NCBI GenBank assembly: GCA_029256485.1
Contig: JAQSXU010000027.1
Span: forward strand, 1 to 37,524
Direction: 5' to 3'
Origin: Clostridiaceae bacterium
GTDB taxonomy: Bacteria > Bacillota_A > Clostridia > Clostridiales > Clostridiaceae
DNA length: 37,524 nucleotides
This document shows, in pieces, positions 6,772 to 37,446 of this stretch. How positions within the stretch are numbered: the first letter of the stretch is position 1; each line of letters starts with the position of its first letter. The translations under genes were made by a program, and so were the position numbers. The notes under the pieces were generated by a model. It ran no database searches and was not told the DNA's origin. It worked only from the letters and a program-made list of their open reading frames with translations.

Positions 6772-9081
6772 CTAACGATCCATTATTATCTGTATAAACT
6801 TTTCCACTAAATTTGGATCAAATTGTTTCCCTGAACACCTTTGTATCTCATCTATGGTTTGTTGTTTCCCCATTGCCTTTCTATATGGTCTGTCATTAGT
6901 CATTGCATCGTAGGCATCTACAATGGATACTATTCTGCATTGAATAGGGATTTCCTCACCCTTTATACCAAAAGGATAACCATTGCCATCCCAGGTTTCA
7001 TGATGCTTTAAAATCAAATCTGATATATGAACCAAATCCGGGGAAGATTTTGCTATCCTGTATCCTATTTCAGTATGCCTATTCATTATGGCCTTTTCTT
7101 CGTCGGTAAGCTTTCCATTTTTAAATAATATATTATCAGGTATTCCTATTTTACCAATGTCATGAAATTGAGTAAACAATGAAATTTCCGAAATTTGTTC
7201 ATCCGACATTCCTACTGATTTTGCTAGGAGAGCAGCTAAATGTCCCATTCTGTTTTCATGGCCTTGGGTTGCAAAATCCCTTGCCTCCAGCATGCTCATG
7301 AGTATTTCAATGTTTTTCCCCTTTGCACTTTGAATGTGATGAAGCTTCTCCCTATACATAAAATCGTCTGCCTCTCTAAATACTCCATGTAAATCCTTAT
7401 TTTTTTCATTCAGTACTGAAAATCCAATTGATATGCTCATTGGAATTAATATGTCATGTGAATTAATTTTATCTAAATGTTCTATGATATGATTTTTTAT
7501 AGTAGATATTTCTTCCTCTGAAGCATCCTTAAGCAATACGGCAAACTCGTCTCCCCCAATTCTTGCAATTATCCCCTTTTCCTTAAAACAAACTTTTAAA
7601 ATTTTTGCTGCAGTTTTTAAATACTCATCACCTTTAGCATGTCCAAGGCTGTCGTTAACAAGTTTTAGTCCATCAACATCACAAATTACAATAGCCACAT
7701 TACTAATTTGTTCTTTTTCAAGTCTTGCTAATTCATTTTCAAAATAATTTCTATTATATAAGTCAGTTAAAACATCAAACATGCTCATTTTGTATATCTT
7801 ATCTTCATTAGCCTTTTTTTCTGTTATATCTCTTGCCATTACAAGAATCTTATTTTTATTGTAATTTACAATCCTGGCTTCAAATGTAAGCAACCTGTTT
7901 TCAATTGGCAGTTGATATTCCAAAATCTGAAGTTCTCCGCTTGTAACAGCCGACTTTATAGCACTCATGAAAATATCAGCATATTTTTCAGGGAAAACCT
8001 GGTTTATAGTTTTTCCAATAAACTGATCTTTTGTAACATATAATTTTTTCTCTAAATTCTCTGATAAAAAATCTAGAAAAAAACCATCATTATTAAGTTT
8101 AAAAACAATATCAGGAATTGCCTTAATCATAGCATCATTTTCATTTTCCCTTTCCTTAAGTTCATCAACAGCTTGAACTAACTGTTTTGTTTTTTCAAAC
8201 ACTTTTTTCTTTAATGTACGGTTTAAAGCAACTAAAGCAACAAGTACTGCTATAATGATTAAGGTGCAATATTCAATGTATTTATAATATTTATTAATCA
8301 TATTTGAATTTCCAAACCATTTGTTATTTATTTGATTGTATTCATTTTTAGATATTAGAGAAAACCCCTTTTCTACAGTTGATAAAAGCTTTGTGTTTCC
8401 TTTCTTTACAGCTCTGTGAAAATCACCGGTATAAAGTGGTTTTGAACTATTAAATTTATCCTGAATGCCTGCCTTATACATTAAATATTGAGCCGGAGGT
8501 TTATCCATAACAAATATTGAAACAATTTTTTTATTAGCAGCATTAATCATATCCTGATAGCTGTCAAAATATGTCAAATTATCTATACCGTTTTTCTTTA
8601 AAAAATCTACACTGCTGTCCCCTCTTTTAACTGCAATATTAAACCCGGATAATGACTCAGCATTTGTTATTCCTGAAATATTATTTTTAAAATATATAGG
8701 AACATCAACTTGAGCATAAGGTTTGGAGAAATCAAAAAGTGCCTTTCTTTCAGCATTTTCAAAAACTGTATCAATTACATCATACTCACCGTTTTTCATG
8801 GCAGTTAATGCTTCATCCCATGGCAATGCATGGATTTCTACTTTTATTCCGGTTTTTTTCTCCCACAACTTCCACTGATCAACCAGAACTCCCTGTATGT
8901 TTCCATTACTGTCTTTAAAAATATATGGTGGGTAATTATCATCCATAACAACTCTGATGCTGCTGTAATTAGATGAAATCTTTTCATTTAAATGAGTTTT
9001 TGCAGCAGAGTATCCAAAAAAACTAATAATTATTAATAAAATAATAATAGCCAAATAAAATAAATTTTTCAGTTTTATCAT
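6772..9081 (-). CDS. Membrane sensor with solute-binding, PAS, GGDEF and HD-GYP domains
   Basis: 769 residues. A signal anchor at 6-25 leads to an extracellular amino-acid-type solute-binding domain (SBP_bac_3 fold, about 42-257, with DDNYPPYIFKDSNG and GEYDVIDTVFENAERK). A membrane helix at 272-287 is followed by PAS (about 312-420), GGDEF (435-590; intact GGDEF at 509-513) and HD-GYP (600-769; HD 640-641, GNGYP 699-703). GGDEF makes cyclic di-GMP from GTP and HD-GYP hydrolyses it, so ligand binding outside may set the balance. The inhibitory I-site RxxD is replaced by KEKG just before the GGDEF strand. ATG 9081 follows GGGGAGG with ideal spacing. It stands alone between terminators and next to chemoreceptors, which fits a motility or surface lifestyle switch. 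The ligand and net activity are unknown. Confidence 0.93.
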   Translation of the reverse strand: MIKLKNLFYLAIIILLIIISFFGYSAAKTHLNEKISSNYSSIRVVMDDNYPPYIFKDSNGNIQGVLVDQWKLWEKKTGIKVEIHALPWDEALTAMKNGEYDVIDTVFENAERKALFDFSKPYAQVDVPIYFKNNISGITNAESLSGFNIAVKRGDSSVDFLKKNGIDNLTYFDSYQDMINAANKKIVSIFVMDKPPAQYLMYKAGIQDKFNSSKPLYTGDFHRAVKKGNTKLLSTVEKGFSLISKNEYNQINNKWFGNSNMINKYYKYIEYCTLIIIAVLVALVALNRTLKKKVFEKTKQLVQAVDELKERENENDAMIKAIPDIVFKLNNDGFFLDFLSENLEKKLYVTKDQFIGKTINQVFPEKYADIFMSAIKSAVTSGELQILEYQLPIENRLLTFEARIVNYNKNKILVMARDITEKKANEDKIYKMSMFDVLTDLYNRNYFENELARLEKEQISNVAIVICDVDGLKLVNDSLGHAKGDEYLKTAAKILKVCFKEKGIIARIGGDEFAVLLKDASEEEISTIKNHIIEHLDKINSHDILIPMSISIGFSVLNEKNKDLHGVFREADDFMYREKLHHIQSAKGKNIEILMSMLEARDFATQGHENRMGHLAALLAKSVGMSDEQISEISLFTQFHDIGKIGIPDNILFKNGKLTDEEKAIMNRHTEIGYRIAKSSPDLVHISDLILKHHETWDGNGYPFGIKGEEIPIQCRIVSIVDAYDAMTNDRPYRKAMGKQQTIDEIQRCSGKQFDPNLVEKFIQIIMDR

Positions 9082-17487: not shown

Positions 17488-20400
17488 TTACTGATTTAAA
17501 AATAAATTAGCAATTTCTTTTGCTGAATTTATCTGTTTTATCTTCTCAATTATTTCTTCTCTAGATATTACATCAAACAATTTTAAAACTATTTCTCCAT
17601 CCCCCTCTTTCAGTGCAAGCATAATTATAGTATTAACCTCATTATCATTCTCCCAAATAATAGAATGCTTAAGTTTAAAAATACATATTGAAGATTTTTC
17701 AACATAATCCGGTAAACCATGAGGTATTGCAATATTTCCTGCGACTATTGTACTTCCCATGATTTCTCTTTTATATACACTCATTACATAATCTTTATTA
17801 ACAACACCTTTTGTTTGCATCAATTTACACATCTCATCAATTGCATCGCCTTTAGAAAATAAATCCTCTCTTATTTGTACCAAATCTTCATTAATTACAT
17901 AACTTAATGGGTTAACAGCTTTTATTCCTATTAAGTTTTTTAACGTGAGTTTACCAGATTCCTTCAAAATATCCTGAAATGAAATAAATGGAATGCTAAA
18001 AATTTCCGGATTAATAGTGCCTACTACTGCAATTACATTATGGTCTTCACTAATCTTAAGAATTTTATCTTTAGCATTATCTCTATTCATGATTCCAATA
18101 GGCATTATATCTAAATTTTCATTAGAGCAATCCAGTATATCTTCAAGATACTTTTTAATTTTTAATGCTGTACCTTCCCCAGTTATACATATTGTGATTA
18201 TGGTCTTTGGGTACTTCTTAACGCCTTTTACTTTCCCAACATAGGATTTATCTCCATCTATAGCATCAGCTATTTCATTTAGATTACTATTGGTCATAAG
18301 TGCTCTTCTTACTGCTTCTAAAACCATTACAGTATCTACTCTGCCAATTATTCTTGTTGGGATTCCTGTTTGTTTGGTAATGATTTCACCAAAAGTTACT
18401 AGAGAGCCCATATCAACAAGCAATAAACATCCTTTCCCTTCGTGTACTTTTTTCACTGTTTCTAAAGTTCTTTGAAGTAAATTTTGAGGACTCTCATCAA
18501 GTGACATTTCAATCCCTACCGCTAAGTTTGTACCTAATAACTTATTTGCTACGTCTGCCATTCCACAAGCTACATGTCCATGGCTTAATACAATAACATC
18601 AACTCTGCTTACCTTTTGATCCATAGTAGAAAACGTTTTTAAGTACATGGCTAAAAAACCAATTTCATCATCAGGTAATTCTATTTTTAAACTCCTGTTT
18701 ATTTCTTTTGTCAATATTTTAGCTACTCTGTATTCATTATAATATTCATTTTTAATGTAATCTAATTGAGGATTTTTAATTATTCTTCCTTGTTTTAGTC
18801 TTTCAAAAGTAGAGTTTAAATGCACTGCAACACAATAATAAAAATTTTCTTTTATATTATCTATGTAATTTTTCGCCATATTAGTTACATTTTCTACAAC
18901 CTTTAATATCTTTTCATCAATTATATTCTTTAATTCTTCCTTAGGAAAGAGTATATTTGCCTCAATATTTTTAGCAAATCTATTTAAATCAGATTTCATT
19001 TTATTCCAAATAATTTTATTTATTTCATCTTTTTTAAGACCTTGCTTTTCCAGTTGATAATATTTTTCTTCTATATTACTATATATTCCATCAGGTAATA
19101 GATATCTGTCATCCTTTTGTTTATGTGTGCTTACATTTCTAGGATTAACAACCAAATCATCATTAAATATATCGTCTGACATTGAATTTCTGCTTGCAAC
19201 ACTCAGTAGTCCCAAGGGTACATGCTCAGGTAAATCCGTTATCTCAATAACAACATCTGATAGATTATTACTTAATGAATTTAAAAAACCTTTAGCACAT
19301 GCTACTTGAATATCACTTCTTAATTGACCTATATTCCCTGGACAATCATAGGATAATAAGGACCTGGCAACATCAAACTTTACTGTTATTTCCTTTCCAA
19401 CTCTTGCAGCTTCCTGTGAAAAGAAATTTTTGATTAATACATATCTTTCATTGGTTGGTCTGTTATTAATAGACGGAAGCTCAATTATCATTGGTATTCT
19501 CCTCCTAAATGTTAGTAACAAAGAGGATTTTGGATCTTCTGTTGTAGCTGCTATTACCATAACATTAGCTCTTCTACTATTTTCTGTTTCCCCAAGCCTT
19601 CTATACCTTCCTTTGTCTAGCAAATAAAATAAGATTTCTTGTCCTTCACTTGGCAGCCTATGTACCTCATCTAAAAACAAAATTCCATTATTAGCCTTTT
19701 CCACTAGCCCAACCTTATCTGCATTGGCACCAGTAAAAGCACCTTTTACATATCCAAATAATTGTGAAAGAAGTAATTGTGGGTTTTCCGCATAATCTGC
19801 ACAATTAAAAACTACAAAAGGAATATTATTTTTGAAATTTGAAGAATTAACTGCAAAATTATACATGGATTCTGCAAAAAAACTCTTTCCTACACCTGAA
19901 GGTCCAAGAATTAGAGTATGAAGTCCATGTGGCGGATACAAAACTGCTGCCTCAGCTTGTCTTATTTGATTTCTTAATGAACCATGGTACCCTATAATTT
20001 CTCTTAAATTGTTAATTTTCCTCATACCATTTTCTGACATATTATAATTACTTAACTTGCTATTGCTTACATTATCTAAATTTTTACTATTTACATTTTC
20101 TTCTAAGTCTTCTGTTACATTTTCTACACAACTTGCACTTACACAATTTTCAGGTTTTTCAATTCTACTTACATAATTTTCAGATTTTTCAGTTACATTT
20201 TCTTCATCAGTATATTCAACTTTATTTACTTTTCCATCAGCTTGATTTTCTTCTTTCTCTGAATTTGTAGTCATAGTTTCCTTCAAAAGTTGCCTTCTTA
20301 TTTGAGCTACAGAATATCTAGAAATATCATATCCAATAGCAGTTAACTTTTTACATAATAAATTATCTGAGATTGAATGATCATATTCCAGCAGCTTTTT

Positions 20401-20577
20401 AATGTCACTTAATAGAATTTGTTCCTTTCTTTCACGAGAATTGAGCAAATTGTTTTTTTTCCTAAATTCAGTTATGTATTCTCTTGTTGTGTTTACTATT
20501 TTTGCAATATCACTATCAGTTATAGGTTTTCTTTTATCCTCTTTCTCAATAAGTTCAAGTATTTTATCTTCAATCAT
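17488..20577 (-). CDS. LevR-type sigma-54-dependent activator with PTS-sensing domains
   Basis: 1029 residues from ATG 20577, chosen for its AGAAGG site; the frame is open another 32 codons upstream without one. Order: two N-terminal helix-turn-helix-like segments (about 15-50 and 65-100, the second resembling the RpoN C-terminal DNA-binding box), an acidic ENV-rich linker (about 105-180), AAA+ (Walker A LGPSGVGKS about 229, sigma-54 contact loop GAFTGA about 280, Walker B LFLDEVHR about 299), a PRD (about 550-650), an EIIA-Man-like domain (VIVLSHGHVACG about 666), an EIIB-Gat-like segment (ICITGEGTA about 800), and a C-terminal EIIA type-2 domain with NIAIPHGLP (about 950). Phosphorylation by HPr or by the operon's PTS proteins should set its activity. 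It very probably drives the pentitol operon immediately downstream. Confidence 0.92.
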   Translation of the reverse strand: MIEDKILELIEKEDKRKPITDSDIAKIVNTTREYITEFRKKNNLLNSRERKEQILLSDIKKLLEYDHSISDNLLCKKLTAIGYDISRYSVAQIRRQLLKETMTTNSEKEENQADGKVNKVEYTDEENVTEKSENYVSRIEKPENCVSASCVENVTEDLEENVNSKNLDNVSNSKLSNYNMSENGMRKINNLREIIGYHGSLRNQIRQAEAAVLYPPHGLHTLILGPSGVGKSFFAESMYNFAVNSSNFKNNIPFVVFNCADYAENPQLLLSQLFGYVKGAFTGANADKVGLVEKANNGILFLDEVHRLPSEGQEILFYLLDKGRYRRLGETENSRRANVMVIAATTEDPKSSLLLTFRRRIPMIIELPSINNRPTNERYVLIKNFFSQEAARVGKEITVKFDVARSLLSYDCPGNIGQLRSDIQVACAKGFLNSLSNNLSDVVIEITDLPEHVPLGLLSVASRNSMSDDIFNDDLVVNPRNVSTHKQKDDRYLLPDGIYSNIEEKYYQLEKQGLKKDEINKIIWNKMKSDLNRFAKNIEANILFPKEELKNIIDEKILKVVENVTNMAKNYIDNIKENFYYCVAVHLNSTFERLKQGRIIKNPQLDYIKNEYYNEYRVAKILTKEINRSLKIELPDDEIGFLAMYLKTFSTMDQKVSRVDVIVLSHGHVACGMADVANKLLGTNLAVGIEMSLDESPQNLLQRTLETVKKVHEGKGCLLLVDMGSLVTFGEIITKQTGIPTRIIGRVDTVMVLEAVRRALMTNSNLNEIADAIDGDKSYVGKVKGVKKYPKTIITICITGEGTALKIKKYLEDILDCSNENLDIMPIGIMNRDNAKDKILKISEDHNVIAVVGTINPEIFSIPFISFQDILKESGKLTLKNLIGIKAVNPLSYVINEDLVQIREDLFSKGDAIDEMCKLMQTKGVVNKDYVMSVYKREIMGSTIVAGNIAIPHGLPDYVEKSSICIFKLKHSIIWENDNEVNTIIMLALKEGDGEIVLKLFDVISREEIIEKIKQINSAKEIANLFLNQ

Positions 20578-20611
20578 ACTTATACCTTCTTCCAAATGTT
20601 TCCCTTGCTTA

Positions 20612-20659
20612 TATAAACAAATTTGGATTAATGAGCTATTCTTTATTATAAACAAATTT
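20612..20659. repeat. 13-bp direct repeat in activator leader
   Basis: TATAAACAAATTT occurs perfectly at 20612-20624 and 20647-20659, 35 bases apart, between the proposed activator promoter and start codon. The distal copy overlaps the proposed -10 box. It could be an operator for autoregulation, but AT-richness makes a chance origin possible. Confidence 0.5.
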
Positions 20660-20683
20660 AGACGAAAAAGCATTAAATTTCAA
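20655..20683 (-). promoter_or_regulatory. Possible sigma-A promoter of the activator gene
   Basis: TTGAAA (20683-20678), 17-base spacer, TAAATT (20660-20655), about 78 bases upstream of ATG 20577. The match is fair, and the surrounding sequence is AT-rich, so other placements are possible. Confidence 0.45.
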
Positions 20684-20857: not shown

Positions 20858-23800
20858 TCATTTTGTCCACTTTGCTATAAGAGCTTTTGCATCACTATTT
20901 AAGACTTCCTTTGCGTCATTTGATATATGGCTGTCCATTGGAGGGTTATTAAGATGTTTTATAAAGTCATCCATATGATAAACAGCCTGAACAACTTGTT
21001 CCTTCTGAACAAATTGTTCAGCCTGAGTAAGATTGTTGGTCAATTGAGAGGCTAGCGGTCCTGTTAGTTTTTCTGACTTTATATATCCATCCATAAGTTT
21101 TTCTATAGATGCAGTACTTGTGTCAACAGTAATGGTAACTTTATTAGTTTCCACTGTGATTCCATCAAGAGTTACCTTTGCGTAAACATCTGATGTACCA
21201 ACATTCTTAGCTGTGATAACACCAGTATTCTTATCTATGTCAGCCACAGAACTATTACTTGTAAAATACTCTACAGTTGTTTTAGACATATTAGCATTTG
21301 AATTATCATCCAGCTTTGCAGTGACAGAAGCCTTTGCTATATCATTTCTTTCAAGATTGATATCATCTATAGCTAATTCTGCACTGGCAAGCTTTATTTT
21401 AAAGTTTACAGTGTAATTTTTTATAGTGTACCCGTCCTCTGCAGTTACAGAAATTAAGGCACTTCCAGGGAATCTGTCAGCTTGACTAACAACTGCATTG
21501 GCATTTTCATCATCTGTTGTAACTGTAACCTTAGGTGAAGCTGAAGTTGAAGCCGGAAGAGGTACATTATATTCTAAAGCATTTTTGTCAAAGCCTTCTA
21601 AAGCAGTACTATCTATTTTTATAGAACTTAAATCTGCGTTATGTGACAATGTAGCCGGATCCACCAGACTTACAAGAGATATTGCAAATATCTTTGCCCC
21701 GCTCTTATCTGGCAGCGTTATACTGCTAATCTGCTTGGTTTTGTCAACAGCTATAGACTGCGTAAATAAATATGTGGATGGTCCTACTATACCATTTCCG
21801 TTTCGAATTCTATGATCCATGGAATATGCTACTTTTTCGTCAGCGCTTGGGCTCTGGCACCAGTCGCTAAAGGTTAAATTAGATGGTGAAGTACTGGTTC
21901 CATCTGTATAATTAACTATTATATTAACATTAGTCTGCTTTCCAGCACCGGCTTCAAGTAAATATACTTTTTCTGCAGATGCAGCAGTGGATAATGTTAT
22001 GGTCTGACCCTTGCAGGCAACTATATTATTGCTTGTACCTGTCATAGGTCCTATTGGGAATTTAATATTAGAGTAATTAACTATAGAAGGAATTGCAGTT
22101 CCATCATAAGCCCAGCCTACTGTGTCAAACATACCTTCATTAGTATTGTCAGGTGTACTAGCGCCATCCTGGTTAAAGTACTGTGTTAAGTCTACAGCTG
22201 TACCTTTATTTAGGAATAACTTGAAGCTTGACTCTGGTGATGGTTTTCCTTCACCTAGAATATTATAAGGGATAACAGTAAAATAATATGTTTTTCCTAA
22301 TGATAAGCCAGTGAAGGTAACAGAGTTTCCCATGACTCCTTTGATTTCATTGGCGTATTTTCCTGGTTCAGTACCGTATTTAACAGTTATCTCATCGGTA
22401 TCCTTTGCTAAATTAAGATTTAATACCACTGAGGAATCATTTTGTACAATGCTTGATATTGAAGGTGCATCCGGTACAGCTTTTGGAAAATCTGCATCAT
22501 CGCCGTATACCTGAAGCTCGTAAATTCTTGCAGCTACATCGTTTGTATTAGTTGGCTTTGTTGCTTCAAATCTTACATATCTTCCTGTTACAGGAACAGT
22601 AAGCAGATCCTCAGTAATGCTGTCTTTATTACCTGTACGCACAACAGCAACTTGCCATTTGCTTATATCTGGGTTATTATCGCTGCTAACCAATATTCTG
22701 TAATCCCTGGTATTCCAATCTGTTGTTTCTCCACCAGCTCCTGCATGGAAAACTTTAAAGCCGTCTATTAACTTATCTGAGCCTAAATCAATGGTGTTCC
22801 AATGTACATTAGTCGATCCGTTGTTATAACACCATTTCGTAGATATATTGCCATCATTAATAAGTGAAGCCGCTTCATTAGCATTCATTTCACCGTCTGC
22901 TTTTGCAGGTCTGAATAATGCAATGTTTGCTCCAGCATATATTGAAATTATATCTGACATAGGTCCTATATTTCCTGCCTCATCCTGAGCACATACTGCA
23001 TAATAATACTTTTTAATAGTTGCGAAATTTGAATCAGTATATTTGGTGTCCGCTGTGGATGAAAGCAGTACAGCATCTGAAAAATCTTCTTTCGTTGCTC
23101 TATAAATAAAATAGTTTGTAACGCCTGTGTTATCACTAGCTGCATCCCATGATAAATCTATAGAAGCATTATAATACTTTTTAGCTCCAGCTGCTTTTAA
23201 ATTATTAACCTTTGTTGGTGACTGCTGATCTGAAGATATTACCACATTTCCATCAACAAATGACATAGCAGCAATTTTAATTGCCTTTGCATCAGGTAAA
23301 GTTATACTCTTTATTGTCTTTGATGAATCAAGGACCATTTTATACACATACATATTATTATCTATATCAAAGGTATTTCCATTTGGTGTATGTGTATGTG
23401 ACAAGTTAAGCCCTATTGTGTCCTTAATGTATGTCTTTTGAGCATAGCCTACTGTATCCTGCCAGCCTGCAAAACTAAAGAATCTTGATGAAGAAGTATC
23501 ATCTGTGTAGTTCACTTTCACTTCTCCAAGTCCTACTCCTGATGTAGAGTTTCCAAGAATGAATAAATATTGATGTCCTCCAGCATTAGCGGTGTCAATT
23601 GTCTGGCCTGTAGCTTGGACAATATTTTTACTTCCATCAGTCTTTGGGCCAATATTAAATACTATGTCTTCACTGTTAACCTTGTCCGGCATCAAATCTG
23701 CAGAATAAGTTTCCCCCTTGCCGTTTAGGTCTCCATCATTTCTATTTGAGTCAAAGGACATACCATCTAAATTATAGTAAGCTGAAAGGTCTATCTGCTG

Positions 23801-26428
23801 ACTTTCAGGTTTCTCATCCTTAAATATTCCAGAGGCATCAAATTTAACAAGGAATGTCTTTATTTCATACTTATTTAGTGTAGTTGTAAAACTATTTCCA
23901 CTAGCTTGTGGACTTACTGCTCCTGGAATTGCATCTTCAATGAGATTAACTTCCTTAATTTCAGAAATGTTAGCTGGAAGAGTTACATTAGCATTTGTAT
24001 TATCCTTTCCCTCTGTTTCAACAAGTCTAACTATATAACTGTTAGATCTGTCTTCATTGTTCTTTTCATCTATGAGTCTTGATTCTGCCTTTTTAAATAC
24101 AGACAGAATAACATTATTGTCATTAGCTGAGGCCTTTGCAAAGGATGCTGCAGCTGCTAAATCTCCAGAATGATTGGATGTTGCCAGTGTTGTAATTGGA
24201 TAATTGTACTCATAAGCTTTTGCTTCAACATCAGCAGTTTTCCAATCGCCGCTGTGAGGATAGAATGAATATTTTATTTCCTTATTTCCTGTATCAGTGG
24301 CTCCTCCCCTATTATCTGTTGGAGATCTTAATAGAGAAAGACGTAACACTCCATTTGGACAGTCCCAGCCTTCCTTGCTGTCACTTAATACAGATACTCC
24401 AAAGCCATCCTTAGACATGTCCGCAAATTTATAGCCCTCAACTTCAAACATACCTTTGGTATTTGCAGCAGGTCTGGTTATTGTGGAATATGCTATATCA
24501 TAAGTAACATTTTCAGCATGTACGCTCATTGGGAAGGCCACCTTAAGCATAGTTTGCTTTTCATTCCAATTAACTTTAAGGTCCATATCTATTCTGTTTA
24601 TATTATTGTAAAGAGTTATATACTCGTCAATTGTAGAAGAACCAGAAGGAGATACTTTGGAAACCTTAAATGTTGCCTTTGTTGGTCCGTTCTCAACTAA
24701 TGTAACAGGCACACTAACTGTATTAACTTCTTTAGGAACTGCAGACATATCATCATAATCAATATTCCATGACTCATATTCTCTAGGTGTGTCTTCCAGG
24801 AACTGAAGCCTGTTAAACTGTTGATTTGCATCAACTACTTCTTTATTATTTTTCTTGTCAAATATGCTTGCTATATTCCCTGTGGCAGGGTCAATGCTTA
24901 CCTTAAAGAATTGATTTTCAAAGGTTTTATTTTCATTATCTACTTTTATAGTTGAAGAAAACTGGCTGCTGGATTTTTCAACTGCTCTGTATACGGAATA
25001 TCCTAAAGCAGGTATAGATGCCTCAAATGCCACCACTGCCTTATTTCCATTTTTGCTTAAAATTTGATTTGGTATCTCTTTTCCATCAGCATCTAATATT
25101 GTTATAGTGCTGTCTGAAGAAGTTAAGCTTATATCTGTCTGCACTGCCTCTGTTCTATCCCAGGATAATGCATTATACAGCATTATAGGTTGTCCTTCTC
25201 CTTGGGTATTTACTCTGTTTGCAATTCCATAGATTGCTGTGTTCTTAGCACTATTCAGTTCATTAAGAGCAATTTCTGCATCATTGAAGGCATCCGCATA
25301 CACTGGTGCTATTGCAGAACCAGGCAGTACATCATGGAATTGATTTAATAGTGTTTTCTGCCATGCAGAATTAATTTTCTGCTGAGGATAATTCTCTGAA
25401 CCTAAAATTGAGGCAACTGAACTAAATTTTTCTGCCTGTTCAGCAGTTTCTTCTGAATAACGGTTATACTTCTTCATTGGATCTGCAGTTGTCATTACAC
25501 CCCTGTGGTATTCAAAATACAGCTCATTATTTACATCGGGAACAGCTGTATTTTTGCTTTTTACCTGCTGATCTAAATTTTTAAAAGTATCTTCTGCAGT
25601 AGACATTTTAACTGAAGGATAAGCTGAATTACTGTCTATGTTTTTAATATTATTCAAATCGCTTTGAGTTGGTCCACCGCCGTGGTCACCTGAACCGTAG
25701 AGTACAAGGCTTGCATTTAAACCTAAACTTGATGGATAGTTCAATGTGTTTGATAAAGTTGTACCATTAATTGACCCTCCGCTGAGAGAATAGTCATTAG
25801 ATGGCTTGTAGCTTGTCACAGTACTTCCATCAGGCGCTGTCCAGTTGAAATATTCATAGGGCCATCTATCTGTATCCTGCCAATTAAGCTTTGTAGTAAC
25901 AAAATAATCCATGCCGCTTTTTTTAAGTATTTGAGGCATGTTGTAGTTAAATCCAAAAACATCTGGAACCCAGCCTATATTAGGTAAAACCCCATAATTA
26001 TCTCTAAAATAATTTTGAGCAAATAAAGATTGTCTTACTAAAGATTCACCGCTGGTATTATTTAGGTCTGGTTCTATAACCTGCCCCCCAACGATTTCCC
26101 ACTGTCCATTTTTCACCTTTTCAGCAATTCTTGAAGCTAGATCTGGATAATATTCCTTTGCCCACTGATAAAATTGAGATGATGATTGGCTGAAATGGTA
26201 GTCTGGATTTGCATCCATAAGGTCAAGTGCCCTTTTAAAGGTATCTGGTATAACCGAACTTATAGTTTCAGCATATCTCCAGTTCCAGGCTGCATCAATA
26301 TGAGCATTTCCAATCATATTAACTGTAGATGTCTTGTCATAGGCTTGAACAATATTTGATGGAAGTGCTGTTAGCAGCATTGAAGCAGTGATTCCCAAGC
26401 CTATTGCCTTTTTGAATATCCTTTTCAT
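20858..26428 (-). CDS. Secreted multidomain GH38 alpha-mannosidase
   Basis: 1856 residues, about twice the usual GH38 length. A signal peptide (1-29, ending NIVQA) is followed by the catalytic domain: GNAHIDAAWNW (zinc ligands H43, D45) and WVPDVFGF (nucleophile D156), then helical and beta domains to about 865. Next come an unnamed beta module (about 870-1060), FN3 (1071-1160), an F5/8-type C (CBM32) domain (1168-1309), FN3 (1320-1402), a second copy of the beta module (about 1415-1590), a cadherin-like domain (1596-1690), a Big2-like domain (1690-1770) and a helical tail. No LPXTG or SLH anchor is seen, so it is probably released. It should cleave alpha-mannosidic bonds in glycans or yeast and fungal mannans. 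It starts behind AAAGGAGGG, 31 bases after the membrane protein gene, and likely feeds the PTS upstream. Confidence 0.93.
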   Translation of the reverse strand: MKRIFKKAIGLGITASMLLTALPSNIVQAYDKTSTVNMIGNAHIDAAWNWRYAETISSVIPDTFKRALDLMDANPDYHFSQSSSQFYQWAKEYYPDLASRIAEKVKNGQWEIVGGQVIEPDLNNTSGESLVRQSLFAQNYFRDNYGVLPNIGWVPDVFGFNYNMPQILKKSGMDYFVTTKLNWQDTDRWPYEYFNWTAPDGSTVTSYKPSNDYSLSGGSINGTTLSNTLNYPSSLGLNASLVLYGSGDHGGGPTQSDLNNIKNIDSNSAYPSVKMSTAEDTFKNLDQQVKSKNTAVPDVNNELYFEYHRGVMTTADPMKKYNRYSEETAEQAEKFSSVASILGSENYPQQKINSAWQKTLLNQFHDVLPGSAIAPVYADAFNDAEIALNELNSAKNTAIYGIANRVNTQGEGQPIMLYNALSWDRTEAVQTDISLTSSDSTITILDADGKEIPNQILSKNGNKAVVAFEASIPALGYSVYRAVEKSSSQFSSTIKVDNENKTFENQFFKVSIDPATGNIASIFDKKNNKEVVDANQQFNRLQFLEDTPREYESWNIDYDDMSAVPKEVNTVSVPVTLVENGPTKATFKVSKVSPSGSSTIDEYITLYNNINRIDMDLKVNWNEKQTMLKVAFPMSVHAENVTYDIAYSTITRPAANTKGMFEVEGYKFADMSKDGFGVSVLSDSKEGWDCPNGVLRLSLLRSPTDNRGGATDTGNKEIKYSFYPHSGDWKTADVEAKAYEYNYPITTLATSNHSGDLAAAASFAKASANDNNVILSVFKKAESRLIDEKNNEDRSNSYIVRLVETEGKDNTNANVTLPANISEIKEVNLIEDAIPGAVSPQASGNSFTTTLNKYEIKTFLVKFDASGIFKDEKPESQQIDLSAYYNLDGMSFDSNRNDGDLNGKGETYSADLMPDKVNSEDIVFNIGPKTDGSKNIVQATGQTIDTANAGGHQYLFILGNSTSGVGLGEVKVNYTDDTSSSRFFSFAGWQDTVGYAQKTYIKDTIGLNLSHTHTPNGNTFDIDNNMYVYKMVLDSSKTIKSITLPDAKAIKIAAMSFVDGNVVISSDQQSPTKVNNLKAAGAKKYYNASIDLSWDAASDNTGVTNYFIYRATKEDFSDAVLLSSTADTKYTDSNFATIKKYYYAVCAQDEAGNIGPMSDIISIYAGANIALFRPAKADGEMNANEAASLINDGNISTKWCYNNGSTNVHWNTIDLGSDKLIDGFKVFHAGAGGETTDWNTRDYRILVSSDNNPDISKWQVAVVRTGNKDSITEDLLTVPVTGRYVRFEATKPTNTNDVAARIYELQVYGDDADFPKAVPDAPSISSIVQNDSSVVLNLNLAKDTDEITVKYGTEPGKYANEIKGVMGNSVTFTGLSLGKTYYFTVIPYNILGEGKPSPESSFKLFLNKGTAVDLTQYFNQDGASTPDNTNEGMFDTVGWAYDGTAIPSIVNYSNIKFPIGPMTGTSNNIVACKGQTITLSTAASAEKVYLLEAGAGKQTNVNIIVNYTDGTSTSPSNLTFSDWCQSPSADEKVAYSMDHRIRNGNGIVGPSTYLFTQSIAVDKTKQISSITLPDKSGAKIFAISLVSLVDPATLSHNADLSSIKIDSTALEGFDKNALEYNVPLPASTSASPKVTVTTDDENANAVVSQADRFPGSALISVTAEDGYTIKNYTVNFKIKLASAELAIDDINLERNDIAKASVTAKLDDNSNANMSKTTVEYFTSNSSVADIDKNTGVITAKNVGTSDVYAKVTLDGITVETNKVTITVDTSTASIEKLMDGYIKSEKLTGPLASQLTNNLTQAEQFVQKEQVVQAVYHMDDFIKHLNNPPMDSHISNDAKEVLNSDAKALIAKWTK

Positions 26429-32533: not shown

Positions 32534-34405
32534 CTAGTCTTTAATTTTGAAAACAGGTACTGCGCAGTCTATTGACCCATTTCTTTCATTTGGATGCCTT
32601 GCTAATAATGCTGCTTTTCCGCACCCATTAATATCTGCTGCAAATGGCTGCATATCCTGCCCTCCAGACCAATATTTAAATACATTATTTGCTGGTACAA
32701 ACTGATTTCCTTTGCTTAATGCTACCTGCCATAGTCCATGAAGATAATCTACTGCCAAAATATCATCTGTCCCATCTCCGTCAAAGTCAGCCGCCATGGG
32801 CTTCCAAAGTATTCCTAAAGCCCAGGATTTCAGCCAGGCAAAATCCCCCATACCTTCATGGGGAATAAATTTAGAACCATTGCTTATAGATACAATCCAG
32901 TTTCCCTTATAAGGATCCCATAAGGCAATATCAGTTTTCCCATCTCCATTAAAATCACCAGCTAAAGGTACACAATCCTTACCAATCCCCCAGTTTTCAA
33001 GCCATAGGCTGCTGTTATGCTTAGTATCTTCTTTGAATTTTCTGCCATTACTTAAAGCAACTCTCCACTGCCCTTTCACAGGGTTCCACATTAAAATATC
33101 ATCCATGCCATCACCATTGAAATCTCCAATTAATGGCACCCAGTTTTTATCTACTTTCCACTCTTTTGTCCATTTAAAATCTGCAAATTTTTTATTTGGA
33201 ATAAACTTTGTGCCGTTACTTAAAGCTGCCTTCCAATGAGATTTCTTAGTATTCCAGGCCAGTACATCTTTTTTCCCGTCTCCGTTAAAGTCACCAAACA
33301 TAATCTTCCAATCTGTTCCAATTACCCATTTGGATAAACCTAAAGACCTGATATTCTTTACTTCTTCAAACAATCTTACAGGGAACTTTTCAATATTTAC
33401 CTTTGAATACTGAAAAATACCCGTGTCAGTGTGCCACCCTATAAATTCATCTTTTCCATCTCCGTCTATGTCTGATAGAAAAAGTTGGGTGGTATTTCCT
33501 GGGAAAACATTTACTGCTTTGGCTGAAGGTATGAAGTTAACTAGGCTTAATATGGGCACAAAAGTAAACCCTTTGCTCTTAAATATTCTAATAAGCTGCT
33601 TTAAATATGAATTTTCATTGTAGTGAATTCCTGAATCAGTAATTTCAATAAATGGGAAATCTAAATAAGGATGATAGAAAAAAGAAGCTAAGTCTTCTTC
33701 AGTATAACTGTTTAATTCTTCAGAAATACGCTTCACATGAACCTCAGGATTTTCACCATGAACATAATCCAAAGGTGTTGGTACATAAATTACACCTCTA
33801 TAAAAGGCACTATCTGTATCTTTAATTATTACACTTCTCTTAACTTGATTTTGTGATGGATCTGGTTCATAAAAAAGCCCACACCAGGCTTCCAAAATAT
33901 TTCTCTCTGGCCAATCAGCTGCGTAATGCGGGGTAGAAAATCCCCAATCAATATTAATTCCGGCTTTTTTAAAGGCTTCGTATCCTGCCTTCATTCGGCT
34001 GTAGGCATATGATTTTTCAAATGCTTCCTTTTCACAGCATGCCCACCGCTTATCATGTGGAGGCACATCTTCTTTTAAATCAATATTATAAAATTCAAAT
34101 CCTGAGGCACTATCACTGTTTCCAAATTGATGAGTATAGCCATGGATGCCTACGGCACCGTCATCTACTTTTTGTAAGTACCTTATTGTGTTATTAAATT
34201 TCTTAATAAATGGATCTGCTGTATCTGCAATGGATTTGTCATAATTAATAGACGGAAGAACAGATCTAGGAATTACTGACATTTGAAAAGGCACATTTTC
34301 AGATTTTAAATAGTCACCAATGGCTTTTAACTTCATTAATGCTTCTTCTGTCCCATATATTGAACCAGGTTGTATATCCTCCAGTCTTATAAGGGCTCTT
34401 TTCAT
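32534..34405 (-). CDS. DUF2334-type polysaccharide-deacetylase-like domain fused to FG-GAP repeats
   Basis: 623 residues. The N-terminal part (about 3-290) resembles the DUF2334 branch of the NodB/polysaccharide deacetylase superfamily: ALIRLEDIQPG at the first strand, GIHGYTHQFG at about 105 (the HxxTH-like metal block), WGFSTPHYAADW about 152, and FFYHPYLDF about 242. The C-terminal part has six repeats of about 50 residues with a calcium-binding DxDGDG or DFNGDG loop (SDIDGDGKDE, GDFNGDGKKD, GDFNGDGMDD, GDFNGDGKTD, ADFDGDGTDD); the sixth is degenerate (ADINGCGKAA). Such repeats form a beta-propeller used for binding. No signal peptide is present, and an in-frame TGA directly precedes ATG 34405, so the start cannot be earlier. 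Substrate and location are unknown. Confidence 0.8.
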   Translation of the reverse strand: MKRALIRLEDIQPGSIYGTEEALMKLKAIGDYLKSENVPFQMSVIPRSVLPSINYDKSIADTADPFIKKFNNTIRYLQKVDDGAVGIHGYTHQFGNSDSASGFEFYNIDLKEDVPPHDKRWACCEKEAFEKSYAYSRMKAGYEAFKKAGINIDWGFSTPHYAADWPERNILEAWCGLFYEPDPSQNQVKRSVIIKDTDSAFYRGVIYVPTPLDYVHGENPEVHVKRISEELNSYTEEDLASFFYHPYLDFPFIEITDSGIHYNENSYLKQLIRIFKSKGFTFVPILSLVNFIPSAKAVNVFPGNTTQLFLSDIDGDGKDEFIGWHTDTGIFQYSKVNIEKFPVRLFEEVKNIRSLGLSKWVIGTDWKIMFGDFNGDGKKDVLAWNTKKSHWKAALSNGTKFIPNKKFADFKWTKEWKVDKNWVPLIGDFNGDGMDDILMWNPVKGQWRVALSNGRKFKEDTKHNSSLWLENWGIGKDCVPLAGDFNGDGKTDIALWDPYKGNWIVSISNGSKFIPHEGMGDFAWLKSWALGILWKPMAADFDGDGTDDILAVDYLHGLWQVALSKGNQFVPANNVFKYWSGGQDMQPFAADINGCGKAALLARHPNERNGSIDCAVPVFKIKD

Positions 34406-34460: not shown

Positions 34461-34500
34461 TGTGTAAAAATAAAAGAGCGCAGACAAAAGTGCCTGCGCT
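34461..34500 (-). terminator. Intrinsic terminator of the P-type ATPase gene
   Basis: AGCGCAG (34477-34483) pairs with CTGCGCT (34494-34500). On the minus strand TCTTTTATTTTT follows. It is GC-rich in an AT-rich context and ends the transcript after the repeat element. Confidence 0.8.
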
Positions 34501-34512
34501 AGCGACGTAATT

Positions 34513-34621
34513 CGGGTGCTATAGATAAACAATATGTAAACTTAACTTATACAGCGGGAAGATTGCGAATCTTCTACGCATTTTCACGCTGTATAAGTTT
34601 ATAGTTGAAGTTGTTTATCTA
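34513..34621. repeat. Structured repeat element, copy B (complete inverted repeat)
   Basis: TAGATAAACAA (34522-34532) and TTGTTTATCTA (34611-34621) are perfect 11-bp terminal inverted repeats of a 100-base unit. Nested inside are CTTATACAGCG (34545-34555) with CGCTGTATAAG (34587-34597), and a central hairpin GAAGATT/AATCTTC (about 34558-34574). The left half plus CGGGTGCT (34513-34520) is shared with copy A. It begins 8 bases after the ATPase stop. It may be a miniature mobile element or an RNA structure in the 3' untranslated region. Confidence 0.75.
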
Positions 34622-34628
34622 AAAATGG

Positions 34629-37178
34629 TTACATTCGACGAAAGCTGGGTGCTACCTGGTAGCATTCGACAAGTTTCACTATTTCGTACCAAAATACTGA
34701 AGCAGCAGCAACCAATATTGCGGTTATAAACTGAGTAAAAGACAGTGGAGCAAGATTTAGAATTACCCTAAGAGGTGTATACATCATTAATAATAGCCCT
34801 GCAAATGTGCCAATACTTGCGGCCCACATTACATTGTCTTTATACAGCCGGCGTATAGATTTAATTGCGTATTCATAGTTTGAGCTGTTTACCTGAACTA
34901 AAAATAAATTAGCTATAATAATTATGGAAAGTCCCATGGTTCTTGCCAAAGCTGCATTTCCAGGGTCCTGCTGCAGGAATGTAAAGTAAGTTCCAAAAGA
35001 TGCTGTAAATACTATGAATCCCTGCACAAGGCTTTTCGCAAGAATTGATGTAGTAAGAATTTTTTCGTCAGTATTTCTTGGATTACGTTCCATAATGTTA
35101 TTTTCAGCAGGCTGGCGTTCAAGTACAATGGAGCATGTAGGATCAATAACAAGCTCCAGCAATACCACATGTACCGGCAGTAAAAGCAGGCTGGCTGGAT
35201 TTATTTTTAAAAAAGGAGCAAGCAGTGAGGCAAACGCAATTGGTATATGAATTACAAATACATAACCCACTGCTTTTCTGATGTTGTCATATATTCTTCT
35301 TCCATCCTTAATGGTATCTACAATGGTAGAAAAGTTATCATCCATCAGAATCAAATCTGCAGCTTCCCTGGACACTTCAGAGCCACGTTTACCCATAGCT
35401 ATTCCGATGTCCGCGTATTTTAGCGCAGGAGCATCATTTACACCGTCACCAGTCATAGCAACAACTTCACCATTTTCCTTAAAGGCTTTTACAATACGCA
35501 TTTTATGCTCAGGCACCACACGTGAGAAAATACTTATATACTTAACCTTTTCACGCAGTTCTTCATCGCTCATGTTGTTAAGCTCATCGCCTGTAATAAT
35601 TTTATCACTGTCTGGCATTCCAATTTGTTTTGCAATAGAACTGGCAGTGATTCCATTATCACCTGTAATCATTACAACTCTTACTCCAGCTTTGGTGCAG
35701 TTGATAATATCCTGTTTTACAGACTGCCTTGGAGGGTCAGCAAGGCCAATAAGCCCGCAAAGTGTTAAGCTGCAGTCGGTGATTTTTTCAGGGATTTGAC
35801 ATTCACTATTCAACTTCATAATTCCAACAGCAATAACTCTTAATCCTTGTAAAGACATTCCCTTTATTTTATCTTCTGCCTTCTTTTGTTCATCCTGTGT
35901 CAATGCGGAAATTGATAGAATTCGCTCTGGAGAACCCTTAGCTGCAATAATAATTTCACCATCATGTCTCCAAACATGTCCCATGGCTTTAATTTCATTT
36001 GTAAAAGAGTATTCTGTAATTAAATCTCCGCCAAATATATGATCTTTAGCTATTCCAAGCTTTTCGCAGTGAGAAAGCATTGCCTTTTCCATTGGGTCGT
36101 AAGCATCAGTTTCACAAGCTAACCCCATAATTTCGCAAAGAGAATTTGTATCATCGTCCACAGCCCAGGTACTCTGTACAGTCATTTGATTCATGGTTAT
36201 GGTACCAGTTTTATCAACACATAGTACTGATACGGCACCTAGAGTCTCCACAGCAGGAAGCTTTCTTATTAGGGAATGTTTTTTAGCAAGCCTCCATGCA
36301 CCCATTGAAAGAAATACTGTAAGAATAACTGGAAATTCCTCTGGTATCATGGCCATGGCAAGTGTGATACCAGAAAGAACACTTTCAATAATTCTGTCCT
36401 TAAAGGCATGGTCCGGAATGTTAAAATAGGTAATGATACACACCAATATAAATAATACTCCTGCAATACCAGCACAGGTCTTAACAAGTTTACCTGTCTG
36501 TCTTTGCAAAGGAGTTGGTTTTTCAGGGGCAGACTCTACATTTGCAGCAATTTTTCCATACTCAGTTGCTGATCCAATTCTTTTAACTTTAATCACTGCA
36601 CTTCCCTGTATAACCAGTGTTCCTGCATAACAATAATCCTTATGCCAGTAATCAGTGGAGTTTTTGTCTGAATCATCAATAGTCTGTTTCCAAACCCCTT
36701 CAGATTCACCAGTTAAAGTGGATTCATCTACACAGAGGTCGCTGGATTTAATTATCTCACCATCAGAAGGGATTTTTACACCTTCTGTAATAATCATTAA
36801 ATCCCCAGGCACTAAATCAGTACTTGCAATTAATTGTTCTCTTCCTTCCCTAATCACTGTAATATGCGGTGCTGATAAGTCTTTAAGGGCATTTAGTGTT
36901 TTATCGGTTTTCCATTCCTGCACCACATCTATACTAATTATGCCAACCACAAAAACAAGCATAATTACACCATCACGTGGTTCACCTAGAATAAAGTAGA
37001 TAACAGCCGCTGCAATTAAAAGAAGAAACATTGGCTCCTTAATAATATGAATCACCTTTTTGAAGAAACTTTGCTTTTTTTCTGATGTAATTTGATTTTT
37101 TCCAAATTTCTGTTGTAATTTTTGGGCTTGGTCATTTGTTAGGCCTTGTAATAATGATAAGCTTTCTTGTTCTGTCAT
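34629..37178 (-). CDS. P-type cation-transporting ATPase, probable Ni2+/Co2+ (or Fe2+) exporter
   Basis: 849 residues with the P2-type layout: cation-ATPase N-terminal domain (1-60), two helices, the actuator loop with TGES (about 155), helix 4 with AMIPEEFPVILT (about 280), phosphorylation motif DKTGTIT (D about 322), nucleotide domain with KGSPE (about 410), the hinge TGDGVNDAPALKYADIGIAMG (about 585), and six C-terminal helices including VIHIPIAFAS and VIDPTCSIVLE. The PEEFP/IHIPIA/DPTCS set replaces the calcium-pump PEGLP motif, and P1B features (CPC, N-terminal CxxC) are absent. Sequence alone suggests only a divalent cation; the NiCo riboswitch upstream points to nickel, cobalt or iron efflux. 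ATG 37178 follows AGGAGG at ideal spacing. It is monocistronic. Confidence 0.9.
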   Translation of the reverse strand: MTEQESLSLLQGLTNDQAQKLQQKFGKNQITSEKKQSFFKKVIHIIKEPMFLLLIAAAVIYFILGEPRDGVIMLVFVVGIISIDVVQEWKTDKTLNALKDLSAPHITVIREGREQLIASTDLVPGDLMIITEGVKIPSDGEIIKSSDLCVDESTLTGESEGVWKQTIDDSDKNSTDYWHKDYCYAGTLVIQGSAVIKVKRIGSATEYGKIAANVESAPEKPTPLQRQTGKLVKTCAGIAGVLFILVCIITYFNIPDHAFKDRIIESVLSGITLAMAMIPEEFPVILTVFLSMGAWRLAKKHSLIRKLPAVETLGAVSVLCVDKTGTITMNQMTVQSTWAVDDDTNSLCEIMGLACETDAYDPMEKAMLSHCEKLGIAKDHIFGGDLITEYSFTNEIKAMGHVWRHDGEIIIAAKGSPERILSISALTQDEQKKAEDKIKGMSLQGLRVIAVGIMKLNSECQIPEKITDCSLTLCGLIGLADPPRQSVKQDIINCTKAGVRVVMITGDNGITASSIAKQIGMPDSDKIITGDELNNMSDEELREKVKYISIFSRVVPEHKMRIVKAFKENGEVVAMTGDGVNDAPALKYADIGIAMGKRGSEVSREAADLILMDDNFSTIVDTIKDGRRIYDNIRKAVGYVFVIHIPIAFASLLAPFLKINPASLLLLPVHVVLLELVIDPTCSIVLERQPAENNIMERNPRNTDEKILTTSILAKSLVQGFIVFTASFGTYFTFLQQDPGNAALARTMGLSIIIIANLFLVQVNSSNYEYAIKSIRRLYKDNVMWAASIGTFAGLLLMMYTPLRVILNLAPLSFTQFITAILVAAASVFWYEIVKLVECYQVAPSFRRM

Positions 37179-37264
37179 AATAGTTACCTCCTAATTTGCT
37201 TATTAAAGCATTAATAAGATAGCTCTATGGCATTGCAGATTTCTAAGTATATGCTCCTATAATT

Positions 37265-37310
37265 GTATAAAAAAACACCTATGGAACATAATACTGTCCC
37301 ACAGATGTGA
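37265..37310 (-). terminator. Riboswitch-controlled intrinsic terminator
   Basis: On the minus strand CACATCTGTGGGACA folds back on TGTTCCATAGGTG, with two mismatches and a small bulge, followed by TTTTTTTAT. The GGGACA arm is also part of the NiCo aptamer, so aptamer and terminator exclude each other. It is 85 bases upstream of the ATPase start. Confidence 0.8.
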
Positions 37311-37377
37311 AATGTTTCAATCTGTTGCTGTTGCCAGCCCAGCCCCACGAACCTTATTGGTTCATCGCCTGCTCAGT
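37293..37377 (-). ncRNA. NiCo (czcD) riboswitch aptamer
   Basis: The minus strand reads ACTGAGCAGGC, a hairpin GATGAACC/GGTTCGTG, then GGGCTGGGCTGGCAACAGC, AACAGAT, a hairpin closed by ATCTGT, and GGGACAGT. These blocks, in this order, match the NiCo aptamer whose crystal structure was solved (CUGAGCAGGC, CCGGGCUGC, GCAACAGAU, CAUCUGUGGGACAGU), as I recall it. The class binds Ni2+ or Co2+ (Fe2+ has also been proposed) in a four-helix junction. Ligand binding stabilises P1 and P4 and should block the terminator directly downstream, turning the ATPase gene on when metal is high. Confidence 0.92.
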
Positions 37378-37417
37378 TTGTACTGTAGATTAATATGCAG
37401 CGCAAAGAGACACTTAC

Positions 37418-37446
37418 ATTATAATATATGTAAAATTATGAATCAA
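37418..37446 (-). promoter_or_regulatory. Sigma-A promoter of the riboswitch-ATPase transcript
   Basis: TTGATT (37446-37441), 17-base spacer, TATAAT (37423-37418). Transcription should begin near 37411, giving a leader of about 233 bases that contains the whole aptamer and terminator. Confidence 0.8.

What the first reader, a model, noticed from the sequence alone, without database searches (positions are those of the whole stretch)
37265..37446. NiCo riboswitch with overlapping terminator drives a non-P1B P-type ATPase
All conserved blocks of the NiCo aptamer are present, with a consensus promoter upstream and a T7 terminator whose arm re-uses the aptamer's GGGACA. This gives a concrete on-switch model: metal bound, terminator blocked, pump made. 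The pump is a P2-like ATPase with PEEFP, IHIPIA and DPTCS instead of P1B metal motifs, so the RNA predicts a transition-metal substrate that the protein class alone would not. The His in IHIPIA and Cys in DPTCS are candidate metal ligands.
Basis: partly seen in the sequence, partly recalled or inferred. Interest (0 to 1): 0.72.

Follow-up and report, generated by a model that had tools for sequence, protein, structure and literature searches.

The report
Metal-sensing RNA switch controls metal pump
A known type of RNA metal sensor sits in front of a gene for a membrane pump and most likely switches the pump on when iron, cobalt or nickel builds up; the sensor is ordinary, but its pump belongs to a poorly studied group that looks like calcium pumps with a different metal site.

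Summary
Window 37386-37292 (-) is a full-length NiCo riboswitch (RF02683, 78.5 bits, cut-off 37). A 14-bp terminator, 37308-37275, re-uses the aptamer's last helix strand and GGGACA; a promoter ends 31 nt upstream. Both folds are kept by compensatory changes in relatives. This is the published NiCo on-switch architecture. The pump (849 aa, 37178-34629) has a ten-helix P2-like fold closest to Ca2+ pumps, passes no curated P2A or P1B cut-off, and carries PEEFP / HIPIA / ELVIDPTC in place of the Ca2+-pump M5/M6 ligands. The link is not a one-off: 73 of 80 nearest genome relatives have NiCo just upstream. In 291 sampled genomes, 16 of 20 ATPases of this type have it, against 0 of 130 listed Ca2+-type matches. 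The His/Cys signature also occurs in NiCo-less relatives (Nostoc, Sphingobium), so it marks the subfamily, not the riboswitch. A transition-metal substrate (Fe2+, Co2+ or Ni2+) is well supported but inferred; which metal is open, and the class's true ligand is disputed. New member of a known kind, with a useful substrate clue for an orphan pump group.

The parts
37418..37446 (-). sigma-70-type promoter: -35 TTGATT (37446-37441), 17-nt spacer, -10 TATAAT (37423-37418)
   Evidence: 10 of 12 consensus; a match of at least 10/12 before the aptamer in 47 of 74 leaders examined, 0 of 63 control stretches
37292..37386 (-). NiCo riboswitch aptamer, complete (model positions 1-96); conserved GGG of CTGGGC at 37340-37338 and of GGGACAG at 37300-37298
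   Evidence: RF02683, 78.5 bits, E 7.9e-17; positions; helices with compensatory changes in relatives
37275..37308 (-). intrinsic terminator hairpin, 14 pairs, whose 5' arm 37308-37295 is shared with the aptamer's 3' strand; T run 37275-37269
   Evidence: 8 of 16 pairs with changes on both sides in 65 aligned leaders
37186..37192 (-). Shine-Dalgarno-like AGGAGGT, 7 nt before the ATG
   Evidence: read directly from the sequence
34629..37178 (-). P2-like cation-transporting ATPase, 849 aa; M4 PEEFP (279-283), M5 HIPIA (644-648), M6 ELVIDPTCS (675-683)
   Evidence: translation; Pfam E1-E2_ATPase, Cation_ATPase_C, Cation_ATPase_N; AlphaFold model with ten membrane-length helices by my reading of its helix list, nearest folds LMCA1, SPCA1, SERCA
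34477..34500 (-). terminator-like hairpin about 130 nt after the ATPase stop, suggesting a single-gene transcript
   Evidence: 10 pairs, then CTTTTATTTT; consensus match only

Best explanation
The leader is a NiCo-class metalloriboswitch that acts as an on-switch by transcription anti-termination. Without metal, the last helix strand and the GGGACA of the aptamer pair with the downstream arm, a terminator forms and transcription stops before the gene. When a first-row transition metal fills the sites made by conserved guanines, the aptamer holds that strand, the terminator cannot form, and the ATPase is made. The ATPase is a P2-like export pump for the sensed metal (Fe2+, Co2+ or Ni2+), with an intramembrane site in which E281 and/or E280 (M4), H644 (M5), E675, D679 and C682 (M6) replace the Ca2+-pump ligand set. 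Shown here: the RNA, the two mutually exclusive folds, their co-evolution, the subfamily-wide link and the residue pattern. Inferred: the metal response, the export direction, the metal identity and the ligand roles.
For: NiCo hit 78.5 bits. Terminator overlapping the aptamer's 3' strand by at least 6 nt in 72 of 75 leaders (window plus 74 relatives), against 19 of 277 control stretches with any hairpin plus T run of -8 kcal/mol or better. Both folds co-evolve: terminator 94.0% of cells paired (27.8-61.6% when slid), 8 of 16 pairs changed on both sides; aptamer 95.0% (25.9-41.2% slid), 10 of 20. Predicted secondary-structure energies favour the terminator without ligand (-35.9 against -21.9 kcal/mol). 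NiCo just upstream in 73 of 80 nearest genome relatives. In 291 class genomes, 16 of 20 ATPases of at least 48% identity have NiCo 66-230 nt upstream, and 0 of the 130 listed matches of 39% or less have one within 1 kb upstream on the same strand. Of the 42 over-cut-off NiCo matches in that sample, 16 precede this ATPase and 18 a CDF metal exporter; 8 were not examined. M5/M6 positions differ from Ca2+-type pumps: H for N, I for E, E for N, I for T, C for P. The published class mechanism matches (PMC7689651 section 5.3.2; PMC7917058 passages).
Against: No metal response was measured. The His/Cys signature is also present in NiCo-less relatives, including Nostoc and Sphingobium (38-39% identity), whose substrates I do not know, so the signature does not itself prove a transition metal. 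4 of 20 ATPases of this type in the class sample lack NiCo, also by my own RNA model, and 5 of the 80 nearest relatives lack it by every test used here (L049, L052, L063, L072, L077). One NiCo-linked paralogue, L190, has PSEFP, i.e. no E280. The overall fold and sequence are nearest to Ca2+ pumps. The structure model is of middling confidence (mean pLDDT 71.7, pTM 0.65, membrane part mostly 50-80), so ligand geometry was not assessed. No neighbour gene names the metal: an FeoB-like gene (my reading) lies in the flanks of only 3 of 77 loci.
Confidence: 0.8

Rival explanations
1. Same switch, but the physiological signal and cargo is Fe2+ alone: the pump is an iron exporter of anaerobes, and Co2+/Ni2+ responses are laboratory effects. 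(This is a narrower form of the best explanation, so the confidences overlap.)
For: A review reports anaerobic Fe2+ response of the class, that by measured affinities only Fe2+ and Mn2+ could bind it in cells, and that a Listeria NiCo switch precedes a P1B pump giving Bacillus subtilis resistance to Fe2+ and to some degree Mn2+ and Zn2+ (PMC7689651 section 5.3.2); another names the class an Fe2+ riboswitch (PMC11477304 passages). An FeoB-like gene (my reading) lies in the flanks of 3 of 77 loci.
Against: Discovery work found Co2+/Ni2+ response in Clostridium (as reviewed); one NiCo switch in a relative's genome precedes an MFS_3 transporter, a family that I recall includes nickel exporters. 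Neighbours are too few to decide.
Confidence: 0.45
2. The ATPase is a Ca2+, Mn2+ or other cation pump that is induced under metal stress for indirect reasons.
For: Closest solved relatives by sequence and fold are Ca2+ pumps; some sources name homologues 'Ca2+-transporting ATPase'.
Against: The Ca2+-pump M5/M6 residues other than D679 are replaced in all 92 signature rows examined; it scores far under the PMR1- and SERCA-type cut-offs; the other NiCo switches examined in the class sample drive CDF metal exporters, 18 of 18. Four ATPases behind weak Mn-riboswitch matches fall in a separate clade with the Ca2+-type residues.
Confidence: 0.12
3. The leader is a decayed or non-functional copy, or is wired as an off-switch.
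For: No expression data exist here.
Against: Complete aptamer at 78.5 bits, strong terminator, a promoter at a common distance, intact ATPase frame, and the on-switch arrangement conserved with covariation.
Confidence: 0.03

Closest known systems
NiCo (czcD) riboswitch class, RF02683, as reviewed in PMC7689651 section 5.3.2
   Same: Aptamer sequence and structure, conserved guanine blocks, terminator that excludes the aptamer, gene for a cation exporter downstream
   Different: The reviewed members drive CDF exporters (czcD) or, in Listeria, a P1B ATPase; here the gene is a P2-like ATPase. I recall, but could not check (paper not held), that the 2015 discovery paper lists P-type ATPases among its genes.
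LMCA1 (lmo0841), Ca2+-ATPase of Listeria, with SPCA1 and SERCA (P2A)
   Same: Overall fold, ten membrane helices, about 32% identity to LMCA1
   Different: M4 PEEFP, where LMCA1 has PEAL and the Ca2+-type ATPases fetched here PEGL; M5 His for Asn; M6 Glu for Asn and Cys for Pro around the shared Asp
P-type ATPases behind Mn2+ (yybP-ykoY) riboswitches, such as C. difficile CD2503 and Lactococcus YoaB (PMC11477304 passages)
   Same: A metalloriboswitch in front of a P-type ATPase
   Different: The four examples found here (L172-L175; riboswitch matches under the gathering score) are 31-34% identical to the window's protein and keep the Ca2+-type residues. CD2503 and YoaB themselves were not compared.
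PfeT / FrvA / PmtA Fe2+-exporting P1B-4 ATPases (PMC10654040 passages)
   Same: Proposed role: export of Fe2+ or Co2+ by a P-type pump
   Different: Different P-type class; the window's protein is under the P1B cut-offs and has no Cys-Pro-type M4 motif

Membership tests
NiCo riboswitch (RF02683) | covariance-model score over the curated cut-off, full length | tested here: met
   78.5 bits against 37, positions 1-96 of 96
NiCo riboswitch (RF02683) | conserved guanines that bind the metal (G45-47, G87, G88 in the crystal numbering, PMC7689651) | tested here: met
   GGG at 37340-37338 and 37300-37298; these columns are invariant in 65 aligned leaders. Matching to the crystal numbers is by motif, i.e. 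inferred
NiCo riboswitch (RF02683) | expression platform: terminator exclusive with the aptamer | tested here: met
   terminator starts 17 nt before the aptamer's end; covariation of both folds
NiCo riboswitch (RF02683) | metal-dependent binding and read-through | not testable with these tools
   needs in-line probing and transcription assays
P2A Ca2+-ATPase (PMR1/SPCA- or SERCA-type) | score over NCBIfam cut-offs TIGR01522 / TIGR01116 | tested here: not met
   511.7 against 798.3 and 433.2 against 703.4 bits
P2A Ca2+-ATPase (PMR1/SPCA- or SERCA-type) | Ca2+-ligand positions in M5 and M6 (Asn in M5; Asn and Asp in M6; SERCA N768, N796, D800 are recalled numbers) | tested here: not met
   H644 and E675 stand in for the Asn residues; only D679 is kept
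P2A Ca2+-ATPase (PMR1/SPCA- or SERCA-type) | ten-helix P2 fold | tested here: met
P1B heavy-metal ATPase | score over TIGR01525 cut-off | tested here: not met
   249.3 against 346.25 bits
P1B heavy-metal ATPase | CPC-type metal motif in M4 (recalled definition) | tested here: not met
   M4 reads AMIPEEFPVILT
Mg2+ ATPase (TIGR01524) | score over cut-off | tested here: not met
   331.3 against 610.75 bits

The most novel reading that the evidence does not exclude
The PEEFP/HIPIA/DPTC ATPases are an unrecognised subfamily of P2-like pumps dedicated to first-row transition metals, most likely Fe2+ export in anaerobes. Their membrane site is built from Glu (M4), His (M5) and Glu, Asp and Cys (M6), a chemistry reached independently of the P1B metal pumps on a Ca2+-pump scaffold, and the NiCo riboswitch is their main regulator in Clostridia.
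Probability: 0.5. Interest if true: 0.65.

Novelty: new member of a known kind. Interest (0 to 1): 0.42.

Why it matters
It gives an orphan group of P-type ATPases, annotated as 'cation' or 'Ca2+-transporting' pumps where named, a specific and testable substrate class. It also offers a second, independent handle on which metal the NiCo riboswitch senses in cells: the pump's measured substrate should match the switch's true ligand. If the metal is Fe2+, many anaerobic Clostridia would have an RNA-controlled iron exporter outside the P1B-4 and CDF families.

Tried and rejected
Own genome of the window: none held, so its count of NiCo switches is unknown; the nearest protein is from Clostridium sp. 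JN-9 at 86%. Near DNA match of the region in plasmids: none. Neighbour genes as a clue to the metal: no family recurs in more than 7 of 77 loci (many contigs are short, so this is a weak test). FeoB-like in 3 and CDF-like in 4, both by my reading of the sequences. Dropped.

NiCo as the cause of the His/Cys signature: rejected, since the signature is wider than the link (tree, where the NiCo label needs at least 7 changes against 24.3 for shuffled labels; that tree is FastTree with long-branch warnings). Structure for ligand geometry: the model is of middling confidence and no coordinates were examined. Mn-riboswitch comparison: the four linked ATPases lie behind matches of 29.7-37.2 bits, under the 45-bit cut-off, so their Mn link is not certified.

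Limits of the genome sample: one search used stricter filters that lose weak NiCo matches, and one search scored at most 3 candidates per genome, so 20 may be an undercount; only the best rows were listed. The residue rows are not corrected for relatedness and include near-copies.

Rows dropped: L051 has a full-length tblastn match but one in-frame stop, so no ORF of at least 500 aa was found and it is in no residue count. L027, L057 and L059 have no terminator by my finder's mismatch limit; one search shows a terminator-like 3' part in all three. From the 65-row leader alignment I left out L014 (masked bases), L081 (identical leader to L006), L078 (very long aptamer match), the near-identical L039, L040 and L043, the three without a found terminator, and L034, which has one (-19.2 kcal/mol) and was omitted without good reason. 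Of the seven loci without a gathering-level NiCo, L025 has one at 59 bits by my own model (31.5 bits by Rfam), and L015 is masked upstream but shows the 3' end of the aptamer and the terminator (by eye); counting both gives 75 of 80.

Literature: searches. The primary papers (PMC4667775, PMC9389577, PMC6649816) are not held, so I make no claim that the ATPase link is unpublished. A motif search for PEEFP/DPTCS/HIPIA found no relevant paper among the 20 of 33 listed.

Full report
1. Observation. The leader of the ATPase gene at the right end of the window holds a complete NiCo riboswitch, 37386-37292 (-), 78.5 bits against a curated cut-off of 37; it is the only Rfam family over its cut-off in the window. 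The terminator (37308-37275, 14 pairs, with seven T) folds at -20.1 kcal/mol, z -6.35, and starts 17 nt before the aptamer's end. The minimum-energy fold of the leader contains the terminator, not the aptamer's closing helix, as expected for a switch that is off without ligand. A promoter and a ribosome-binding site are in place.

2. More than chance. In 74 relatives with a NiCo match upstream of the same ATPase (73 genome loci and one IMG/VR contig) plus the window, 72 of 75 have a hairpin plus T run overlapping the aptamer by at least 6 nt, against 19 of 277 control stretches with any such hairpin. In an alignment of 65 leaders the terminator helix has changes on both sides at 8 of 16 pairs and 94.0% paired cells; sliding the partner by 1-3 columns drops this to 27.8-61.6%. 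The aptamer helices behave likewise. Because the same columns pair with the aptamer's 5' side and with the terminator's 3' arm, the two folds constrain each other, which is what a mutually exclusive switch should show. The sequences are related, so the shuffle controls of those calls are not probabilities.

4. Link between switch and pump. Of the 80 nearest loci in genome contigs (395 relatives were found and the best 80 kept), 73 have a gathering-level NiCo just upstream. L025 has a weaker one and L015 a masked but recognisable one. Five lack it by every test used: two Bathyarchaeota, one Acidobacteriota, one Desulfotomaculum and one Peptococcaceae (the last has a NiCo elsewhere in its genome). 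As a less biased test I took 291 genomes drawn evenly from the class of one relative. 38 carry an over-cut-off NiCo, 42 matches in all. A protein search of the same genomes, scoring at most three candidates per genome, gives a clean gap: 20 matches of at least 48% identity, then none above 39%. Of the 20, 16 have NiCo 66-230 nt upstream on the same strand: all 13 at 64% or more, 3 of 7 at 48-55%. My own RNA model finds none in the other four (L207-L210). Of the 130 listed matches at 39% or less (110 genomes; further rows were not listed), none has a NiCo within 1 kb upstream on its strand. From the NiCo side, 30 of the 42 were fetched as loci: 12 precede this ATPase and 18 a CDF exporter (Pfam PF01545). 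Four more ATPases come; 8 of 42 were not examined.

5. Ion site. In 92 rows of this subfamily (85 with a NiCo hit, the window included, and 7 without one at gathering level), E281, H644, P646, I647, E675, D679, P680, C682 and E687 are invariant and E280 is kept in 91 (L190 has Ser). Four ATPases behind weak Mn-riboswitch matches and eleven Ca2+-type ATPases from the class sample have G for E281, N for H644, A, G or S for P646, E for I647, N for E675, the same D679, P for C682 and G or S for E687. The pattern replaces Ca2+-pump oxygen ligands by His, Glu and a nearby Cys, which suits a softer divalent metal; that is inference. Nostoc and Sphingobium plasmid proteins at 38-39% identity keep the His and Cys, though Nostoc has PNEFP and His at 675, so the site is wider than the NiCo link and does not by itself prove the metal.

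6. Mechanism and metal. The published mechanism of the class is an intrinsic terminator that the metal-bound aptamer prevents (PMC7689651 section 5.3.2, that section read in full; PMC7917058 passages). Everything seen in the window agrees. The metal is not settled: discovery work favoured Co2+ and Ni2+, later anaerobic work Fe2+, and a Listeria NiCo switch precedes a P1B pump that protects Bacillus subtilis against Fe2+ and to some degree Mn2+ and Zn2+ (the Listeria gene is also described in PMC6985202 passages). I put about 0.8 on export of a first-row transition metal and a little under one half on Fe2+ as the main one.

7. Verdict. The finding is real and correctly read in its main points. 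The riboswitch and its wiring are a textbook member of a known class. What adds value is the subfamily-wide pairing of that switch with a P2-like pump that has its own conserved membrane signature. I cannot say this pairing is unpublished: the two primary papers are not held and I recall that P-type ATPases were listed in the first.

Noticed in passing
That genome has five NiCo switches.
   Followed up: partly
L229 (genome of Acetobacterium fimetarium locus L037): A NiCo switch (77.9 bits) precedes an ABC ATPase and an FtsX-type permease rather than a CDF or P-type pump.
   Followed up: partly
L223 / L230 (genome of L072): A NiCo switch (52.8 bits) precedes an MFS_3 transporter, apparently split into two ORFs (only the first was scanned), in a genome whose ATPase of this subfamily has no NiCo.
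   Followed up: partly
L038, L039, L040, L043: About 3.7 kb holding the NiCo leader and the ATPase is at least 99.9% identical in Faecalispora, Faecalicatena, Caproiciproducens and a Clostridium sp., starting about 100 nt before the aptamer in L038-L040: recent horizontal transfer.
   Followed up: partly
L081 (IMG/VR contig): The ATPase on a contig filed as viral is nearly identical to that of Tissierella pigra (L006), and the 120-nt leaders are identical; a prophage or a misfiled host contig.
   Followed up: no
L207 3991-4151 and L208 1301-1461: An M-box Mg2+ riboswitch (95.9 bits) lies just downstream of a NiCo-less ATPase of this subfamily.
   Followed up: no
G193:C7 and G310:C10: A NiCo-CDF unit lies about 2 kb from, and divergent to, a Ca2+-type ATPase.
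   Followed up: no
window 34544-34599: Inverted repeat AACTTATACAGCG ... CGCTGTATAAGTT between the ATPase stop and the terminator-like hairpin at 34500-34477, seen by eye.
   Followed up: no
window 6772-34405: Sugar-use genes: a large GH38 alpha-mannosidase-type protein with F5/8 and FIMAH domains (20858-26428), a LevR-like sigma-54 activator with PRD and EIIA domains (17488-20673), PTS components and two alcohol-dehydrogenase-type enzymes, a DUF2334/FG-GAP protein (32534-34405), and a solute-binding GGDEF-HD protein (6772-9081).
   Followed up: no
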